Below, piece by piece: positions 16,851 to 62,554 of a DNA stretch of 64,000 bases; the first letter of the stretch is position 1, and each line of letters opens with the position of its first letter. The DNA lies in NCBI RefSeq assembly GCF_024679245.1, contig NC_090178.1, positions 14,707,361-14,771,360 on the forward strand, written 5' to 3'. Origin of the DNA: Pseudorasbora parva. Lineage: Eukaryota > Chordata > Actinopteri > Cypriniformes > Gobionidae. Made by a program: the position numbers and the translations under genes. The notes below the pieces were generated by a model, which saw nothing but the letters and a program-made list of their open reading frames with translations, did no database searches and was not told where the DNA came from.

Positions 16851-17050
16851 TTTACATCAGTTACTGTAAAGAAACTGTAAGTCATTTATAAAAGTGTTAT
16901 TGACTTTATGCCAGAGCTGCTTTGATCTTTGTCTGCCATTATCTGTGATGTTTGTTTATAATATTTACCAGTAAATTATAAGCTACTAGCTACATAGTTA
17001 ATTGAATTCATAAAAACAACCATATATACATAACCATATACAACCACTAA

Positions 17051-17961
17051 GGGCATTTTCACACCTGAAAGTCCACACTAAGGTCCAAACCAAAGTTTGT
17101 GTTTTGATACATTGTATCCATTTGGTCATTTTTGGTTTGCTTTCACATTGCAGTTATGCAAGCGCACTTAAGAACTTTACATGAGGCACTTGCGTCCTGT
17201 CATCATCATCTATCTGGGCTGCATCTTAACATTGATTGGTTTGTTAGCGGTCGTGGGTCTGACGTCAGTGTGTTGTCAATTCAGCGGGTAACTTTGACAA
17301 GAATGAATAAACAGAAGACACATATCGTTGACAATACTGTTAATATTATGGCATTACTATGGCATATTCACCAAATGAACGTCCTCATTGTGCAAACATT
17401 TTATCGGCGCCAACAGGAAAGTAGGAGAAGACTATTAGGCTACTTTAGCCATTAAACAATGTATTTTCTTAGTTATGTTTAAATATTATAATGTTATTAT
17501 TAAATTTCATCTAGGCTATATTGATTATGAAAAGTGCACCCGGTGTGTATGTCAAAGACATTGGGACATATATATATATATATATAAAGCTTGAAAATAA
17601 ATAGTCAAACAAAGCACACTGTTCACGCGAGCTAACTACACAAGCGGTTCTGTTTTAAATCCTGCGCCCTCCATCACTGCATGTGCTGTGAGTTTAACCT
17701 GTTTTTTCACAAATCCTGTCACCAGAACTTTCTGTAAATGGTCTGAAAGTCCGAACTATACAGAAAATTATTTCACACAAGAAATGAACCAAACCCTTGT
17801 TCAGTTTGGTCCGGACCGAGACTACCTCTTTTTGTCTGAACAAAATTTGTCTGTTTGGTCTGGACTATGGTCCGGGGGAGGTTTCACAACTTTAATTTTG
17901 ATTCGGACCAAACTGAAAAGTCGGAAAATCTGGACCAAACAAGGTAGGTGTGAAAACGCCC
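17051..17961. mobile_element. PIF/Harbinger-type MITE with TAA target duplication
   Basis: The element begins GGGCATTTTCACACCTG and ends AGGTGTGAAAACGCCC. It is flanked on both sides by TAA (17048-17050 and 17962-17964), the TWA target duplication of PIF/Harbinger elements. It is 911 bp. The internal words TTTGGTCCGGACCGAGAC and GGTTTGCTTTCACATTGCAG recur in inverted orientation in the second copy at 50059-52816. A 107-codon plus-strand ORF (17132-17455) is only partly shared with the other copy and has no recognisable transposase motif. Confidence 0.8.
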
Positions 17962-17964
17962 TAA

Positions 17965-26660: not shown

Positions 26661-26756
26661 GTTGTTGTTGTTTTTGTTTTTAAACATATTGTTAAGGTTG
26701 TAATAACTTTGTGTTGGTAACCGGCTGAAAATCGCATTTGAAATGTGTGCATTTAC

Positions 26757-27079
26757 AACACGGTCTCATGGTCATGCGTATAAATAGTACGAGTTTGCAA
26801 TCTCGTGGAATGTATATGCCAAAATGAGTTTTGGCATGCGTATGGTACGCGGTTTTTCGCGTGCATATGATACGCACTTTATGGCGTGCATATGACACGC
26901 TCTTGGGTAGGTTTAGGGTGGTGGGGTGGGGGGTTCGCATGTATAATACGGCATAAAGTGCGTATCATATGCACGCGAAAAACCGCGTACCATAAGCACG
27001 GCAAAACTCATTTTGACGTATACATTCCACGAGATTGCACACTCGAACTATTTATACGCATTTTAATGAGATCCGTCTC
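26757..27079. mobile_element. Foldback (MULE-like) element, 323 bp
   Basis: Almost the whole element is an inverted repeat. ACGGTCTCATGGTCATGCG-TATAAATAGTACGAG at the left returns at the right as CTCGAACTATTTATACGCAT-TTTAATGAGATCCGT. Inner arms match through GCACTTTATG-CGTGCATATG words. The centre holds GGGTAGGTTTAGGG (26905-26918). The flanks GCATTTAC (26749-26756) and GCATTTAT (27080-27087) look like an 8-9-bp target duplication with one mismatch. The ends and core are shared with the elements at 30385, 39459 and 42705. Confidence 0.7.
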
Positions 27080-30036: not shown

Positions 30037-31793
30037 CTGGGGTGCGTTTCCCAAAAGTATCGTTAGCCGTCGCAAGTTCCATTGTTATCAACATAGTTCA
30101 ACCAGTCGGTGTTTCCCCAAAACCATCGTTCCAACGAACATTCGCAAACAGCGTCGCAAAGCGTGGTTGCACAGCTCTTGACCAGTGGTTAGAAGCATAG
30201 TTTCTTGTTTGCATGACATGTGGACTTAATAAATACTTATCTTGAGCAAAATAAACAAGGTGACATTTAGCACAATCTATATCTTTTAGTTCGATTACAT
30301 AAAAATGTAATTTATGTCTTTTAAATTTGTCAATAGATTTAAAGCGCCATTACTGAAGAGTGCACATGTGTGGACGTGCTCTACAACCCATTCTCACTCC
30401 CAAGGCGTCGAAATCCGAAGCATGGTCAAGTGCCTTCTACAATGAAGACGCTAAAGGTGCCCCTTGGCGTCATTTTTCGACGCGCTGGGTGCTCCATTCA
30501 TTTCAATAAGAAACCTTTGGCGTCATACACAGACGCACTGGGTATGGGAATATTATTGTCATGGTGAAATTAATTATTTATTTATTACAATTATTTATTG
30601 GTTTATAATTTTGCCATTATGACATGTTGGAGTGTGCTTCTCAACTAAATCAGCAAGTATAATTTCATTTACATTTATTTTATTTACGCTATTTAGACGT
30701 TTTAACATGTAACCCAACCCCACCCCATCCTTAAACCTACCCATTTGTGTGAACATGATATAAAACTCAGGATATAACATACGACTGCATCCACAAATTA
30801 TTCAAAAACAAATTCTGAGGGCAAACGATTGATTTGCATGAAGAAATCCCCAAAAGCGATCAGCATCTCCATCCACCGAAGATCATGAACACATCAAATT
30901 TCAAATATTGCTGCCCGTTACGTGAGTTTTCATAGTGGAATTGCATTGGCTCTCGTATGTCTTGTGACCAATTGCGTCATGCTCAGGAGTCTTTTGAATT
31001 ATTTGAAAGAGATATGAATGAGTTCGTTCATGGGGCAGCGGGATCATCATTTCAGCGATTAAAACATCAAGATCAATGAAGACATCGTATGACTTCAGAA
31101 GACTTGGAATGCAACATGAGTTTTATACTGTAATACTTTTATACTGTTTTGGTCAGTTTTTTGCAATAAATACTTGTGACTGTACATTAATTTGCCTGTT
31201 ATGTGTTTTATATTGTTAAGATGTGGGTAGGTTTAAAGTAGGAGTTGGGTTAGTTGCTCCAAAATATAAAAGTAGCCTTTAAATATTAATTAAATCATGT
31301 CTGCTTTTACAAACGCAAATAATTAAATGCGTCTGTGTATGACGCCAAAGGTTTCTTATTGAAATGAATGGAGCACCCAGCGCGTTGAAAAATGACGCCA
31401 TGGGGCACCTTTAACGTCTTCATTGTGACACAGAAGGCACTTGACCATGCTTTGGATTTTGACGCCTTGGGAGTGAGAATGGGTTGTGCTCTACTATGGA
31501 AGAACGAGCCTCTCATTTAAAATAAGTGAGAAAAATAAGAATCAGTCCTCAGGTGCCATGTCCATCATTTATAGCAAAAAATCTTGCATGAATTCGATCT
31601 CAAAATAATGAATTAAAAGCAGTTATTAGTCCACCACCTGTGTGACATAATTAACCAACATGGCTGAACGACAGATTTGCGACAATTTGTCTTCGGTAAA
31701 CAGTCGTGACTAGCTAGTTGATTTCTTCAACGATGCATCGTACTATGGTAGTTAAGCGTTGAGTAACGCGGTTGTACGGGAAACGCACACCAG
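30037..31793. mobile_element. DNA element with GGGTGCGTTTCCC ends, inserted in the Tc1 copy
   Basis: The left end CTGGGGTGCGTTTCCC and right end GGGAAACGCACACCAG are inverted repeats with one mismatch. Subterminal sequences also pair loosely (ATCGTTAGC / GATGCATCG, GTTATC / AACG words). The Tc1 sequence resumes directly afterwards (GATTTGCTGCCAAAAAGC). The superfamily is not clear: no target duplication longer than 2-3 bp is visible. Removing the inner element 30385-31485 leaves about 650 bp. Confidence 0.6.
30385..31485. mobile_element. MULE-like element with ~155-bp TIRs and 9-bp target duplication
   Basis: The left end AACCCATTCTCACTCCCAAG and right end CTTGGGAGTGAGAATGGGTT start inverted repeats of about 155 bp (30385-30540 and 31326-31485). 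The flanking GTGCTCTAC at 30376-30384 and 31486-31494 is an exact 9-bp target duplication, the signature length of Mutator-type elements. The interior (about 30880-31260) is homologous, in inverted orientation, to the interior of the element at 42705-43671. It has no transposase ORF and lies inside the element 30037-31793. Confidence 0.75.
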
Positions 31794-31813: not shown

Positions 31814-32216
31814 CTATTTTTTTTGTTTTATCCGTCCGCAGAACCAGTTCCAGTTGTGTCTGACAACTGAATATCCTGGAGCTTGTTTTTGGATGAGTAA
31901 GGAGGATATTTTTGTTGTGATGTAGATACTGTTTGCAAAAATTTGTTTAGGTTTCTGACCGCAAGACTCTAATTTCTGCAATTCTCCATCTGTGATTCTT
32001 GGCGAGTCTTTGGCCACTCAAACTTGATATAGACACGCGTCTTCTTCCAGGCAGATTTATAACATCTTTAGTTGATTGGAACGTCTTCATTATTGCCCTG
32101 ATGGTGGAAATGGTGATTTTCAATGCTTTGGTTATTTTGGTACATACACTTTCTGTTTTGTGAAGGTCGACAATCTTTTGCTGCACATCAGAATTATATT
32201 CTTTTGTTTTACTCAT
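31814..32216 (-). pseudogene. Tc1-like transposase N-terminal fragment
   Basis: The ATG at 32216-32214 starts M-S-K-T-K-E-Y and continues with an HTH of the Tc1 type (QQKIVDLHKTES..TKITKALKITISTIRAIM), then an N-L-P-G-R-R-R linker like the GRPR hook of Tc1 proteins. Near 32005 the frame shifts. The next frame gives A-K-D-S-P-R-I-T-D-G-E-L-Q-K before degenerating. The DDE catalytic part is lost to the insertion and to decay. Confidence 0.7.
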
Positions 32217-32427
32217 TGTGATGAATGATGGGGTGCTGATAATTGTGGCAAACATGTTTGGGAGAATGTATTTCTTATTTCGTAATGTGAATTTGCCACT
32301 ACTTTCAATTGTTTCGCTTTAATGAAAGGTTAGAATTTAGTGAATAGGGATAAACAATGCAGATTTAGTTTCACAGCCGCTTATATTTGCTTATATTTAC
32401 CAAAGGTGCCAATATTTTCAGCAAGAA

Positions 32428-35369: not shown

Positions 35370-35897
35370 CTAGCCTGACAAGCCAGACCCACATCAAGAT
35401 GTTTGGTCTGGAAACTCACCATAGACACGGCTCACTCCGAGAGGCGGGATAAACGGTTGTCTTTTAAACTCCCTCTGCACGCGATAGGATAGCGCTACAA
35501 CCAACCAGAGCAACGAAGGTGAAACGGAGTTTGTTGATAGATTAAACATTCGCCGTATCTGGTCGGCAAAACTCTGAACAAATCTTCCCTTTTTAAGAAT
35601 GACTTCAGTGCTGTTCTTTGTCCTTTTCTCAGAGAAAAGCTTAACTCCAAGTCTTCCAGAGTCGTGGTCAAAGCTGATTCGAAAGACGGCCGTTCGCCAG
35701 TTTCTGTGTTTACTAGAAGCACGCAAACGCAACTCGGCCATTGTCATTATGGCTCCGCCCATCGACTCTATACACGATGTGATTGGCCCAGCAAGAGTTA
35801 GGCGAATACAGCTCAGAAGGGTATTGAGAGTTGCTAGACGACACTCACGGGCAGATTAAATTTGCTGCCGCTAGGGTGCGTCTAGATTTCTAGGCTA
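35370..35897. mobile_element. hAT MITE, copy 1 (CTAGCCTGACAAGCC)
   Basis: The 528-bp element starts CTAGCCTGACAAGCCAGACC and ends CTAGATTTCTAGGCTA. It is flanked by CTGTGCTA (35362-35369) and CTGTGTTA (35898-35905), an 8-bp target duplication with one mismatch, as made by hAT transposases. It is the same family and orientation as 62031-62554. The minus-strand ORF across it (35394-35762) is partly shared with the other copy but carries no transposase motif. Confidence 0.85.
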
Positions 35898-39458: not shown

Positions 39459-39741
39459 GCCCGTTCTCACAAAAATGTGTATAAATAGTAAAAGTGTGCA
39501 ATCTCGTGGAATGTATACGCCAAAATGGGTTTTCCGTGTGCATATGATAAGCACTTTATCTATTATACACATGCCACCACCCTAGTCCTACCCAAGAGCG
39601 TGTCATATGCACACTATAAAGTGCGTATCATATGCACCCGAAAAATTGCGTAGCATTTGCACGCCAAAACTCATTTTGGCGTATCCATTCTACGAGATTT
39701 CACACTCGTACTATAAATACGCATTACCATGAGATTGTGTT
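39459..39741. mobile_element. Foldback (MULE-like) element, related to 26757
   Basis: CCCGTTCTCAC then GTGTATAAATAGTA and GCAATCTCGTGGAATGTATACG at the left return as CGTATCCATTCTACGAGATT and TACTATAAATACGCATTACC then ATGAGATTGTGTTG at the right. The central part contains the inverted CCTAGTCCTACCCAAGAGC. It shares the arm sequence CACGCCAAAACTCATTTTG with 26757-27079. No clear target duplication is visible. Confidence 0.65.
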
Positions 39742-40002
39742 GTGCACTCATACTACCAAGGAAATTGTAACTATTATCATTCACACACATAAAGTAACTT
39801 CCAAACGTCCATAGAGTAAAAAGAAAATGTATATAGTCATGTCACATGTGGACTACTTTGATGATGTTTTTATTCCCTTCCTGGACATGAACTGTGTGTA
39901 CACTTGGATACGCTCTCGGACTAAATATAAAATATCTTAAACTGTGTTCTGAAGATTAACGGAGGTCTTACGGGTGTGGAACGACATTAGGGTGAGTCAT
40001 TA

Positions 40003-50055: not shown

Positions 50056-50427
50056 TTAGGGTGCTTTCACACCTACCTTGTTTGGTTCGGATTTTCGGAC
50101 TTTTCAGTTTGGTACGACCAAAATTACAGGTGTGAAACCTCCCTCGGACCAAACAGACGAAATTTGGTCAGACGAAAAGAGGTAGTCTCGGTCTGGACCA
50201 AATAGAACAAAGGTTCAGTTCGTTTCTTGTGTGAAAGCATTTTCTGTATAGTTCGGACTTTCAGACCATTTACAGTAAGTTCTGGTGTAGGATTAGTGAA
50301 AAAACACAGATTAAACTCACAGCACATGCAGTGATGGAGCCACAGCATTTTAAACAGAACCGCTTGTGTAGTCATGTCAGCTCGCGTGAACAGCGTGCTC
50401 TGCTTAACTATATAGCCTATATATATA

Positions 50428-50640
50428 CAGTCTTGTTCAAAATAATAGCAGTACAATGTGACTAACCAGAATAATCAAGGTTTTTAGTATATTTTTTATT
50501 GCTACGTGGCAAACAAGTTACCAGTAGGTTCAGTAGATTGTCAGAAAACAAACAAGACCGAGCATTCATGATATGCACGCTCTTAAGGCTGTGCAATTGG
50601 GCAATTAGTTGAAAGGGGTGTGTTCAAAAAAATAGCAGTG
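50428..50640. repeat. Left IR/DR of the Tc1-like element
   Basis: A 213-bp terminal inverted repeat carries two direct repeats, presumed transposase binding sites. The outer one is TGTTCAAAATAATAGCAGTA at 50434-50453 and the inner one TGTTCAAAAAAATAGCAGTG at 50621-50640. They differ at two positions, as in IR/DR elements of the Sleeping Beauty type. Confidence 0.9.
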
Positions 50641-50725
50641 TCTACCTTTGACTGTACAAACTCAAAACTATTTTGTACAAACATTTTTTTTTTCCTGGGA
50701 TTTAGCAATCCTGTGAATCACTAAA

Positions 50726-51720
50726 CTAATATTTAGTTGTATGACCACAGTTTTTTAAAACTGCTTGACATCTGTGTGGCATGGAGTCAACCAACTTGTG
50801 GCACCTCTCAGCTGTTATTCCACTCCATGATTCTTTAACAACATTCCACAATTCATTCATATTTCTTGGTTTTGCTTCAGAAACAGCATTTTTGATATCA
50901 CCCCACAAGTTCTCAATTGGATTAAGGTCTGGAGATTGGGCTGGCCACTCCATAACATTAATTTTGTTGGTTTGGAACCAAGACTTTGCCCGTTTACTAG
51001 TGTGTTTTGGGTCATTGTCTTGTTGAAACAACCGTTTCAAGGGCATGTCCTCTTCAGCATAGGGCAACGTGACCTCTTCAAGTATTTTAACATATGCAAA
51101 CTGATCCATGATCCCTGGTATGCGATAAATAGGCCCAACACCATAGTGGGAGAAACATGCCCATATCATGATGCTTACACCTCCATGCTTCACTGTCTTC
51201 ACTGTGTACTGTGGCTTGAATTCAGAGTTTGGGGGTCGTCTCACAAACTGCCCGTGGCCCTTGGACCCAAAAAGAACAATTTTACTCTCATCAGTCCACA
51301 AAATGTTCCTCCATTTCTCTTTAGGCCAGTTGATGTGTTCTTTGGCAAATTGTAACCTCTTCTGCACATGCCTTTTTTTAACAGAGGGACTTTGCGAGGG
51401 ATTCTTGAAAATAGATTAGCTTCACACAGACGTCTTCTAACTGTCACAGTACTTGCAGGTAACTCCAGACTGTCTTTGATCATCCTGGAGGTGATCATTG
51501 GCTGAGCCTTTGCCATTCTGGTTATTCTTCTATCCATTTTGATGGTTGTCTTCCGTTTTCTTCCACGTCTCTCTGGTTTTGCTCTCCATTTTAAGGCATT
51601 GGAGATCATTTTAGCTGAACAGCCTATCATTTTTTGCACCTCTTTATAGGTTTTCCCCTCTCTAATCAACTTTTTAATCAAAGTACGCTGTTCTTCTGAA
51701 CAATGTCTTGAACGACCCAT
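50726..51720 (-). pseudogene. Tc1-like transposase, single frameshift
   Basis: The ATG at 51720-51718 opens M-G-R-S-R-H with the paired HTH region (residues about 10-110: KKLIREGKTYKEVQKMIG.. then a G-R-K-R-K hook at about 53-58 and a second HTH). At the T7 run 51373-51379 (A7 on the coding strand) the frame breaks. One base is missing relative to the continuation, which is then open to the stop at 50726. The second frame holds the catalytic triad: D of WTDESK (codon near 51292), D of QQDNDPKH (51019) and E of NPIENLW (50914), with exactly 34 residues between the last two (DD34E). With the missing base the total length would be about 331 residues, normal for the family. No other stop or gap is seen. 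Confidence 0.92.
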
Positions 51721-51834
51721 TTTCCTCAGCTTTCAAATGCATGTTCAACAAGTGTTGGCTTCATCCTTAAATAGGGGCCACCTGATTCACACCTGTTTCT
51801 TCACAAAATTGATGACCTCAGTGATTGAATGCCA

Positions 51835-52047
51835 CACTGCTATTTTTTTGAACACACCCCTTTCAACTAATTGCCCAATTGCACAGCCTTAAGAGCGTGC
51901 ATATCATGAATGCTGGGTCTCATTTGTTTTCTGAGAATCTACTGAACCTACTGGTAACTTGTTTGCCACGTAGCAATAAAAAATATACTAAAAACCTTGA
52001 TTATTCTGGTTAGTCACATTGTACTGCTATTATTTTGAACAAGACTG
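51835..52047. repeat. Right IR/DR of the Tc1-like element
   Basis: Mirror image of the left repeat. The inner direct repeat is at 51835-51854 and the outer at 52022-52041. The transposase ATG (51720) lies about 115 bp inside, so this end should hold the promoter. Confidence 0.9.
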
Positions 52048-52854
52048 TATATATATTTCTAATGTCTGTGAGAAGTAGCCTGTATGCTGAGTTTCAGTTT
52101 ATTTATGAGACCGCTCCAGTTCATGTGCAACGCAAATGATCACTCCGTCACGGAATGTCAGCTACATTATTTATTTAAGCTTATTTATTAAATTCAGGCA
52201 AATTATGAAACATTTATTAAAATTAAGATACAAAATACAAAGCTTTCTACAAAACAAATCTTAATGAAGTGGTCAAAATCATTTCTGACTCGATGTCTTT
52301 GACATATATTGCACATCTGTGCACGTTTCATAATCAATATAGCCTAGATGAAATTTAAAAATAACATTATATTATTTAAACATAACTATAAAATAAAATC
52401 CATTGTTTGGCTAAAAAGCCTATCTTCTAGGAGCTCCTCCTTTCCCATCGGTGCCGATAAAATGTTTGCACAACGAGGACGTTCATTTGGTGAATTTGCC
52501 TCGAGTATAGTTGGCGCTGCAGATAGTAATCCCATAATATTAAGAGTATTGGCAACGATGCATTTGTTCATTCATTCTTGTTAAAGTTACCCGCTGAATT
52601 GACAACACACTGACTTCAGACGCACATCCGCTAACAAACCAATCAATGTTAAGATGCAGCCCACATAGATAATAACGACAGGACGCCAGTGCGTCATGTA
52701 AAGTTCTTTGGTGCGCTGACATAACTGCAATGTGAAAGCAAACCAAAAAGAACCAAATGTCCAAACACAAACTTTGGTTCGGACCTTGGTGCGGACTTTC
52801 AGGTGTGAAAACACCCTTAATTGATTCATGTGGAACCACATTTAAGTTAGCCTA

Positions 52855-53292
52855 CATTATATTGGTAAAAGTTTTTGGACATATGATTTTACAACTCTTC
52901 TGGGAAAGCTTTCCACAAGGTTTAGGATATTTTTTGACCATTCTTCTAGAAGCACATTTGTGAGGTCAGGCACTGATGTTGGACGAGAAGGCCTGGCTCG
53001 CAGACTCCGCTCTAATTCATCTCCAAGGTTTTCTATCAGGTTGAGGTCAGGACTCCGTGCAGGTCAGACAAGTTCCTCCACACCAAACACACTCATTCAT
53101 GTCTTTATGGACCTTATTTTGTGCACTGGTGCGCAGTCATGTTGGAACAGGAAGGGGCCATCCCTAAACTGTTCCCGCAAAGTTGGGAGCATGAAATTTT
53201 CTGAAATGTATTGGTATGCTGAAGCATTAAGAGTTCCTTTCACTGGAACTATGGAGCCAAGCCTATCCCCTGAAAAACAACCCCACACCATA
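52855..53292 (-). pseudogene. Tc1-like relic, left end plus C-terminal transposase piece
   Basis: Following TA (52853-52854), CATTATATTGGTAAAAGTTTTTGG is the eroded terminal repeat of the same subfamily as 58428-59541. The minus strand encodes a C-terminal transposase piece (M-V-W-G-C-F-S-G-D.., N-A-S-A-Y-Q, F-Q-H-D-C-A-P-V-H-K with the second catalytic D) over 53291-53097. Downstream frames are broken, and the N-terminal half and right end are absent. Confidence 0.7.
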
Positions 53293-58427: not shown

Positions 58428-59541
58428 CAATATATTGTCAAAAGTTTTTGGACACCTGCCTTTACATGCACATGAACTTTAATGACATCCCATTCTTAAT
58501 CCATAGGGTTTAATATGGATTTGGCCCACCCTTTGCAGCTATAACAACTCTTCTCAGATAGCTTTCCTCAAGTTTAGGAGTGTGTTTATGGGTTTTAGGC
58601 ACTGATGTGGATGAGAAGGCCTGGCTCGCAGACTCTGCTCTAATTCATCTCCAAGGTGTTCTATCAGGTTGAGGTCAGGACTCCGTGCAGGTCAGTCAAG
58701 TTCCTCCACACCAAACACACTCATCCACATCTTTATGCACCTTACTTTGTGCACTGGTGTGCAGTCATGTTGGAACAGGAAGAGGTCATCCCCAAACTGT
58801 TCCCACAAAGTTGTGAACATGAAATTGTCCAACATGTCTTGGTATGCTGAAGCATTAAGAGTTCCCTTTACTGGAACTAAGGGGGCAAGCCCAACCCCTA
58901 AAAAACAACTTGAAAACAAACTTTACACTTTGCAGGCACAATGCAGTCAGGCAAGATTCTCCTGTCAACCGCAAAACTCACACACGTCAATCGGACTGCC
59001 AGATTCATCACTCCAGAGAACACGTCTCCACTGCTCTAGAGTCCAGTAGTGTACTTTACACCACTGAATCCAATGCTTTGCAGTGCACTTGGTGATGTAA
59101 GGCATGGATGCAGCTGACTGGCCATGGAAACCCATTAAATGAAGCTCTCTTCACACTGTTCTCGAGCTAATCTTAAGGCCACTCGAAATTTGGAGGTCTG
59201 TAGCTATTGACTCTGCAGGAAGTTGGTGATTTCTCTCCACTGTGTGCCTCAGCATGCACTGACCCTGCTCTGTTTTTACGTGGCCAGTTGCAGTTGTTCC
59301 CAATTGCTTCCACTTTATTATAATACCACTAACAGTTGGCCATGGAATATTTAGTAGTGAGGACATTTTATTAATGGACTTACTGCACAGGTGGCAAATC
59401 ATGGTTCCACGTTTGAATTCACTGAGTTCCTGAGAGCGACCCATTCTTTCACAGATTTCTGCCTGCCTATGTGCTTGATGTTATACACCTGTGACCATGG
59501 ACGTGATTCGGAGGGGTGTCCCAATACTTGTGGCAATAGTG
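58428..59541 (-). mobile_element. Tc1-like element, degraded, 1114 bp
   Basis: The element runs from CAATATATTGTCAAAAGTTT (after TA 58426-58427) to CAATACTTGTGGCAATAGTG (before TA 59542-59543). It is shorter than a full Tc1-like element, with a deletion between the two transposase pieces. Confidence 0.8.
58692..59444 (-). pseudogene. Tc1-like transposase, internally deleted
   Basis: The ATG at 59444 gives M-G-R-S-Q-E-L-S-E-F-K-R-G followed by a Tc1-type HTH (..SKSINKMSSLLNIPWPTVSGII.., open to 59151). The C-terminal piece lies at 58919-58692 (V-P-V-K-G-T-L-N-A-S-A-Y-Q and F-Q-H-D-C-T-P-V-H-K with the second catalytic D). The piece in between, which should carry the first catalytic D, is degenerate and shortened. 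It is inactive. Confidence 0.75.
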
Positions 59542-62030: not shown

Positions 62031-62554
62031 CTAGCCTGACAAGCCAGACCCACATCAAGATGTTTGGTCTGGAAACTCACCATTGACAGGGCTCAATCCG
62101 AGGGGCGGGATAAACGGTTGTCTTTCAAACTCCCTCTGCACGGCGTGCACGCAATTGGATATCGCTACAACAAACCAGAGCAACTAAGGTGAAGCAGAGC
62201 TAGTTAAACTTTTTACTCTATCCGGTCGGCAAAACACATCTTCCCTTCTTAAGAATGACTTCAGTGCCGTTTTTTGTTCTTTTCTCAGAGAAAAGCTTAA
62301 CTCCAACTGTTCCAGATTCGCGGTCAAATGCAAGCTGATTCGAAAGTCCGCCGTTCGCCAGTTTCTGTGTTTACTAGAAGCACGCAAGCGCAACTCAGCC
62401 GTCATTATGTTAAGCCCCGCCCATCAACTCTATACACGATGTGATTGGCCTGACCAGAGTTTGGGGTTTACAGCTCAGAAGTGTATTGAGAGTTGCTAGA
62501 CGATACTCGCAGCAGATTAGATTAGCTGCCGCTAGGGTGCATCTTTCTAGGCTA
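62031..62554. mobile_element. hAT MITE, copy 2 (CTAGCCTGACAAGCC)
   Basis: 524 bp, same family and orientation as 35370-35897. The flanking ATACATTG is an exact 8-bp target duplication (62023-62030 and 62555-62562). It starts CTAGCCTGACAAGCCAGACC and ends ATCTTTCTAGGCTA. There is no transposase. Confidence 0.9.

What the first reader, a model, noticed from the sequence alone, without database searches (positions are those of the whole stretch)
50428..52047. Almost intact Tc1-like transposon with one missing A
The two 213-bp ends differ at about four positions, and both have outer and inner 20-nt direct repeats. The transposase is open over its whole length except for one missing base in an A-run (51373-51379 on the plus strand). 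All three DD34E residues are present. This suggests very recent activity, or that the frameshift is a sequencing error in a homopolymer and the copy is intact.
Basis: partly seen in the sequence, partly recalled or inferred. Interest (0 to 1): 0.75.

Follow-up and report, generated by a model that had tools for sequence, protein, structure and literature searches.

The report
Broken copy of young fish transposon
This is one mildly damaged copy of a common, very young "jumping gene" family of the Tc1 kind in a fish genome that also holds many undamaged copies; its one-base frameshift is most likely an ordinary slip in a run of As.

Summary
Window 50428-52047 is a 1620-bp Tc1/DD34E element with TA target-site duplication, 214-bp inverted ends (4 mismatches), inner and outer repeats, and a transposase frame broken only by an A7 run (51373-51379). 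The family is very young: the window's own genome has 2,361 exact matches to the flanks of this run, and 118 of 121 scored protein matches are open over all 331 residues, 19 of them at 100% identity. But this copy is not "intact apart from a sequencing error": it carries five missense changes found in no other of 70 copies examined. The A7 state occurs in 182 of the 2,361 sites, next to 1,952 with A8 and 146 with A9, a near-symmetric slippage ladder. In a (non-random) sample of 40 A7 and 30 A8 copies, A7 is scattered at random on the tree. A7 is best read as recurrent homopolymer slippage; an assembly error at this one locus cannot be excluded. Three of the four end mismatches are inherited family variants, so they do not date the copy. 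An ordinary new member of a known kind; ribosomal frameshifting at the A7 has no positive support.

The parts
50428..52047 (-). Tc1/DD34E element, 1620 bp, transposase on the minus strand
50426..50427 (.). TA target-site duplication, left copy (in an AT repeat)
52048..52049 (.). TA target-site duplication, right copy
50428..50641 (+). left terminal inverted repeat, 214 bp
51834..52047 (-). right terminal inverted repeat, 214 bp, 4 mismatches to the left one
50434..50452 (+). outer direct repeat, left end
50621..50639 (+). inner direct repeat, left end
51836..51854 (-). inner direct repeat, right end
52023..52041 (-). outer direct repeat, right end
51373..51720 (-). 5' part of the transposase frame (DNA-binding part, linker) up to and including the run; read on unshifted it gives a 159-aa product, stop at 51241
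51373..51379 (-). A7 run on the coding strand where the frame breaks; 1,952 of 2,361 sites in the genome have A8
50726..51373 (-). 3' part of the transposase frame (DDE domain) to the stop codon
51290..51292 (-). catalytic D (residue 144 of relative P0001)
51017..51019 (-). catalytic D (residue 235)
50912..50914 (-). catalytic E (residue 270)
51032..51034 (-). codon 230: R here and at 1,812 places of this genome (W at 518); W in 88 of 93 relatives
51251..51253 (-). codon 157: G here only, other 69 of 70 copies keep the usual base; R in 74 of 93 relatives
51068..51070 (-). codon 218: T here only, other 69 of 70 copies keep the usual base; M in 89 of 93 relatives, T in none
17048..17964 (-). paralogous copy (81-84%) of the older repeat into which the element inserted; AT repeat uninterrupted here: paralogous empty site

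Best explanation
A recently inserted, now defective copy of a young, high-copy Tc1/DD34E family. Shown: it sits in an AT repeat inside an older interspersed repeat with a TA duplication; the same genome holds 2,361 matches to the site and many copies with an open 331-aa transposase frame. Inferred: transposase from intact copies binds the inner and outer repeats of the 214-bp ends and moves copies by cut and paste, and this copy was inserted that way. After insertion (or just before) its coding A8 run slipped to A7, and it collected further private missense changes. It can at most be moved in trans by the protein of intact copies.
For: Structure. Genome copies: 40 scored of 458 candidates, window included, all spanning query positions 1-3 to 1620; TA directly on both sides in 35 of 40 and 26 of 30 copies, counted by eye. 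Protein P0001 against the genome: 63,036 first-look candidates, 121 scored, 118 without stop, 19 at 100%. Run lengths over 2,361 sites: A8 1,952; A7 182; A9 146; other 81. A7 does not cluster: 23 changes on the tree against a shuffled mean of 22.7, one clade rejected (p_AU 4.8e-10); A7-A7 divergence 0.82%, A7-A8 0.78%. Length variation in other runs of the element: 0 of 70 in each of two coding A6 runs, 1 and 4 of 70 in two 7-base runs of the ends, large in the 10-base run. Private missense V89A, R157G, A182V, M218T, V288M. Paralogous empty site.
Against: Reads are not available, so A7 at this locus could be an assembly error. The 70-copy sample is not random: 40 were taken by similarity to the window (all A7), 30 by similarity to intact protein P0001 (all A8). 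The tree has mostly low branch support, and the ends look shuffled between copies, so a single A7 origin spread by gene conversion is not strictly excluded. Two 6-base runs in the ends vary too (27 of 70 and 3 of 70 copies have 7), so variation is not a clean function of run length. No transposition event was observed.
Confidence: 0.88

Rival explanations
1. The A7 at this locus is a consensus or assembly error; the real copy has the family's usual run and an open frame.
For: Homopolymers are the usual place for such errors (recalled); A7 and A9 are of similar frequency (182 and 146), as errors could also give.
Against: The same frameshift appears in predicted proteins from other sources: P0122, 7 members, and a carp entry P0123 that shares P0122's N-terminal differences. 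Even then this copy keeps five missense changes unique among 70 copies.
Confidence: 0.12
2. A7 marks a non-autonomous sublineage that spread as such, moved in trans by intact copies.
For: The 40 copies most similar to the window are all A7, and the first comparison showed a seemingly linked site at codon 230.
Against: Both follow from how the samples were drawn. Genome-wide, codon 230 R is the common state (1,812 against 518 places), and A7 places have the W pattern at about the background rate (5 of 32, background 22%, p 0.52). A7 is randomly placed on the tree and one clade is rejected. Codon 230 (CGG/TGG) is a CpG site, so it is a noisy marker.
Confidence: 0.07
3. The A7 run is a functional -1 frameshift site (A AAA AAA in frame), so A7 copies still make some full-length transposase.
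For: In the zero frame the codons are TTA AAA AAA GGC, so the last A of TTA with the two AAA codons fits the classical -1 slippery heptamer (recalled); a -1 slip would give the residues of the intact relatives at the junction.
Against: That coincidence follows from losing one base in an A run. No unusual downstream structure (z = 0.68). 1,952 of 2,361 sites have A8 and need no shift. Private substitutions in 40 A7 copies are spread over the three codon positions (5' part 9/18/11, 3' part 21/12/18).
Confidence: 0.03

Closest known systems
ZB (Tc1-8B_DR) of zebrafish and the ZB-like clade
   Same: DD34E Tc1, single open frame, long ends around 200 bp, TA target, insertion into AT repeats, young with intact copies (PMC7913693: abstract and first results section read; PMC9777934: abstract and part 1 of 2 of Results read)
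   Different: ZB is 1597 bp with 201-bp ends and 341 aa; this family is 1620 bp, 214-bp ends, 331 aa. Clade placement not tested: no ZB sequence was at hand
Sleeping Beauty (SB100X, PDB 5cr4)
   Same: DD34E, linker 'PLL', TA target; catalytic part aligns over residues 108-331; inner and outer repeats in long ends (recalled for SB)
   Different: 47% identity over 223 aligned residues
Tc1-like proteins of carp, Mola mola and Monopterus albus
   Same: DNA-binding part 99% (carp P0146, 100 residues), 93-95% (Mola P0124, P0125), 95% (Monopterus P0128, P0129) identical to P0001 (names)
   Different: Those database entries are shorter than 331 aa with unrelated tails; no DNA was compared
Thm3, Tc1-like transposase of silver carp (PMC4683633; listing and start of abstract seen only)
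   Same: Tc1-like element of a cyprinid reported to mediate transposition in another cyprinid
   Different: Not compared: no sequence was at hand

Membership tests
Tc1/mariner, DD34E/Tc1 group | DDE triad with 34 residues between second D and E | tested here: met
Tc1/mariner, DD34E/Tc1 group | Tc1-type helix-turn-helix plus DDE_3 domain | tested here: met
   both above Pfam cut-off
Tc1/mariner, DD34E/Tc1 group | TA target-site duplication | tested here: met
   window copy; 35 of 40 (window included) and 26 of 30 copies by eye
IR/DR type ends (as in SB, ZB) | about 200-bp inverted repeats, each with an outer and an inner direct repeat | tested here: met
Sleeping Beauty family | high transposase identity (PMC9777934 gives above 80% within each clade, for CDS DNA; 58-61% between SB and ZB groups for DDE protein) | tested here: not met
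   47% amino-acid identity in the linker and catalytic part; note that the paper's 80% is a DNA figure
ZB / ZB-like clade | placement inside the ZB or ZB-like branch of the transposase tree | not tested
   no reference sequence of ZB was retrieved
autonomous element (this copy) | uninterrupted transposase frame | tested here: not met
autonomous family (in this genome) | copies with an uninterrupted transposase frame and both ends | tested here: met
   118 of 121 scored matches open; 29 of 30 fetched loci reach both ends within a base (L068 lacks 52 bp of one end)
currently active family | observed excision or new insertion | not testable with these tools
   only one genome assembly; no reads, no population data

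The most novel reading that the evidence does not exclude
Copies with a slipped run (A7, about 8% of sites) could still make a 159-aa product that keeps most or all of the DNA-binding part without the catalytic part. Such products could compete for the ends and act as a built-in brake on a family that is still jumping, so that slippage in one coding homopolymer tunes the family's activity.
Probability: 0.06. Interest if true: 0.55.

Novelty: new member of a known kind. Interest (0 to 1): 0.25.

Why it matters
The window copy itself is ordinary, and a fish genome with 100 or more open copies of a Tc1 family of this sort is not unique: PMC9777934 reports more than 100 intact ZB-like copies in 26 species. 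What the case offers is a clear view of how a young family decays: a single coding A8 run has lost or gained one base at about 14% of sites (A7 plus A9, 328 of 2,361). The practical lesson is that copies ranked by similarity to a defective query all share its defect, which looks like a defective lineage until the genome is counted without that bias.

Tried and rejected
A7 as a family-wide frameshift: the 40 best DNA matches are all A7, which first suggested that the whole family is broken. The protein search and the run counts showed this to be ascertainment. Codon 230 W to R as a mark of a defective A7 lineage: rejected by genome-wide counts. Programmed frameshifting: no unusual downstream structure, and in one search listing of 15 of 16 papers I noticed none on frameshifting in a eukaryotic Tc1 transposase (listing only). 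Naming the family by its terminal sequence in papers: 0 papers. A search for non-autonomous Tc1 elements with frameshifts in teleosts gave 6 papers, listing only, none followed. Rfam (gathering threshold) and tRNA scans of the window: nothing. A search for the phrase 'transposon ZB' found nothing; a broader one listed the ZB papers.

Full report
WHAT IS THERE. Window 50428-52047 is a complete Tc1-like element of 1620 bp on the minus strand, bounded by CAGT...ACTG and a TA duplication. Its ends are 214-bp inverted repeats with four mismatches, each with an outer and an inner 19-nt direct repeat 187 bp apart. The transposase is read from ATG at 51720 to a stop at 50726 and is broken only at a coding-strand A7 run, 51373-51379. 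The two halves match Pfam HTH_Tnp_Tc3_2 and DDE_3 above their cut-offs. The DDE triad is complete with 34 residues between the last two. The catalytic part of the close relative P0001 aligns to Sleeping Beauty SB100X over residues 108-331 at 47% identity (105 of 223).

WHERE IT SITS. The element lies in an AT repeat inside an older interspersed repeat. A paralogous copy of that repeat at 17048-17964, opposite strand, 81-84% identical, has no insertion and an unbroken AT repeat. This is a paralogous empty site, as cut-and-paste insertion at TA predicts.

THE FAMILY IN THE SAME GENOME. The window lies in G000:C7 of a 1.23-Gb assembly with 79 contigs. DNA search with the element gave 458 candidates; the 40 scored, the window copy included, all span query positions 1-3 to 1620 at 98-100%. 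I fetched the 39 others. Mean pairwise divergence among the 40 is 0.83%, copies lie 0.12-0.62% from the column majority, and none has an indel inside the coding region relative to the window copy (the ranking favours such copies). The site around the run occurs 2,361 times in the genome with exact flanks, so the family is probably larger than that.

THE FRAMESHIFT. In all 40 of these copies the run is A7. This looked like a family-wide defect, but it is an effect of ranking by similarity to an A7 query. With the closest relative found in the protein database, P0001 (331 aa, 97% to the 3' half), the same genome gave 63,036 first-look candidates, of which 121 were scored, all aligned over residues 1-331, 118 without a stop and 19 at 100%. 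Thirty of these loci were fetched and all 30 have A8; 29 of 30 reach both ends within a base, one (L068) lacks 52 bp of one end. Exact counts over the 2,361 sites: A8 1,952 (82.7%), A7 182 (7.7%), A9 146 (6.2%), other 81 (3.4%). In the first 100 listed places the split is 80 A8, 6 A7, 10 A9, 1 A10 and 3 with a C. The near-symmetric -1/+1 ladder is what replication slippage gives. Other runs in the 70 copies: two coding A6 runs vary in 0 of 70 each; two 7-base runs in the ends vary in length in 1 and 4 of 70; the 10-base run outside the coding region is highly variable (commonest length 9, in 32 of 70). Against a simple length rule, a 6-base run in one end is 7 long in 27 of 70 copies and its mirror in the other end in 3 of 70; the first is probably an inherited variant.

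IS A7 A LINEAGE? On a quick tree of 40 A7 and 30 A8 copies, built without the run and codon 230, the state changes 23 times against a shuffled mean of 22.7 (range 16-29; 188 of 300 shuffles at or below), and holding A7 together is rejected with p_AU 4.8e-10. A7 copies are no closer to each other (0.82%) than to A8 copies (0.78%). The only other site with a frequency difference above 0.3 between the samples was codon 230 (R state in 34 of 40 A7, W state in 29 of 30 A8), and this too was ascertainment: genome-wide the R pattern has 1,812 places and the W pattern 518; on C1, 6 of 9 A7 and 49 of 80 A8 places have the R pattern at the expected distance (Fisher p 1.0); and 5 of 32 A7 places on C1-C3 and the first 30 Mb of C4 have the W pattern against a background of 22% (p 0.52). 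Caveats: weak branch support, a CpG at codon 230, and ends that look exchanged between copies, so gene conversion could scatter a single origin. The same frameshift in proteins with other N-terminal differences (P0122 with 7 members; carp P0123) also speaks for recurrence. P0121 has a frameshift at the same place with a different codon after the run.

IS THIS COPY INTACT APART FROM THE RUN? No. At eight sites it has a state found in at most 2 of 70 copies, seven of them unique. Five unique ones change the protein: V89A, R157G, A182V, M218T, V288M; Y192H is shared with one other copy. In 93 full-length relatives position 157 is R in 74 (G is not among the six commonest residues, which cover 88 of 93) and 218 is M in 89, L in 3 and A in 1; positions 89, 182 and 288 are variable. 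So even if the A7 were an assembly error, the copy would not be a pristine one.

AGE. Three of the four mismatches between its ends (positions 113, 126, 127) are variants that segregate in the family on both arms; only position 133 is private. End-to-end mismatch is therefore not a clock here. Seven unique substitutions in 1620 bp (0.43%) are a better measure of time since this copy arose; among A8 copies the closest pair differs by 0.12%. With fish substitution rates of a few per 10^9 per year (recalled) this means on the order of a million years for this copy and less for the youngest.

HOW IT WORKS. By analogy with SB and ZB (PMC7913693, abstract and first results section; PMC9777934, abstract and part 1 of 2 of Results), transposase from intact copies should bind the inner and outer repeats, pair the ends and move the element to TA sites by cut and paste. 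That step is inferred; no activity was measured. Private substitutions in the 40 A7 copies are spread over all codon positions (5' part 9/18/11; 3' part 21/12/18) and 4 of 40 have further premature stops (L016, L035, L039, L043), as expected for copies that decay freely after insertion.

FRAMESHIFTING. The zero frame at the run, TTA AAA AAA GGC, contains a -1 slippery heptamer (recalled rule), and a -1 slip would give the residues found in intact relatives. This follows automatically from losing one base of an A run. No unusual downstream structure was found (z 0.68), and 1,952 of 2,361 sites do not need a shift. I hold this unlikely.

PLACE AMONG KNOWN FAMILIES. Tc1/DD34E with IR/DR ends: the defining features tested are met. 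It is not SB by identity. Whether it belongs to ZB or ZB-like was not tested. The DNA-binding part is 93-95% identical in Mola mola and Monopterus albus database entries, which are distant fishes from carp; horizontal transfer, already described for ZB and SB (PMC9777934), is a likely reason but was not tested at the DNA level.

Noticed in passing
window 51032-51034 and genome-wide: Codon 230, next to the second catalytic D, is W in 88 of 93 relatives and R in none, but the R pattern has 1,812 places in this genome against 518 for W. Either tolerated, or most copies depend on W copies for movement. Part of the W state may come from CpG deamination.
   Followed up: partly
window 50428-50641 and 51834-52047: End variants at positions 113, 126 and 127 segregate on both arms (right arm C/T/G in 59/58/60 of 70 copies, left arm G/C/A in 47/48/46 of 70), as if the two ends were exchanged or converted between copies.
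   Followed up: partly
window 26755-26924 and 39574-39743: 170-nt inverted arms, 88% complementary, 12.65 kb apart, with 25-bp tandem repeats at both ends: possibly a large DNA transposon of about 13 kb.
   Followed up: no
window 30383-30537 and 31328-31487: Inverted arms 94-97% alike with about 0.8 kb between them: probably another short element.
   Followed up: no
window 52968-53281 and 58597-58909; 35370-35897 and 62031-62554: Two further repeat pairs, 90% and 84% alike.
   Followed up: no
window 31947-32318, minus strand: An open frame that looks, by eye, like the helix-turn-helix part of a different Tc1-like transposase (not searched).
   Followed up: no
proteins P0124, P0125, P0128, P0129: Mola mola and Monopterus albus entries 93-95% identical to this family in the DNA-binding part: a candidate for horizontal transfer between distant fishes.
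   Followed up: partly
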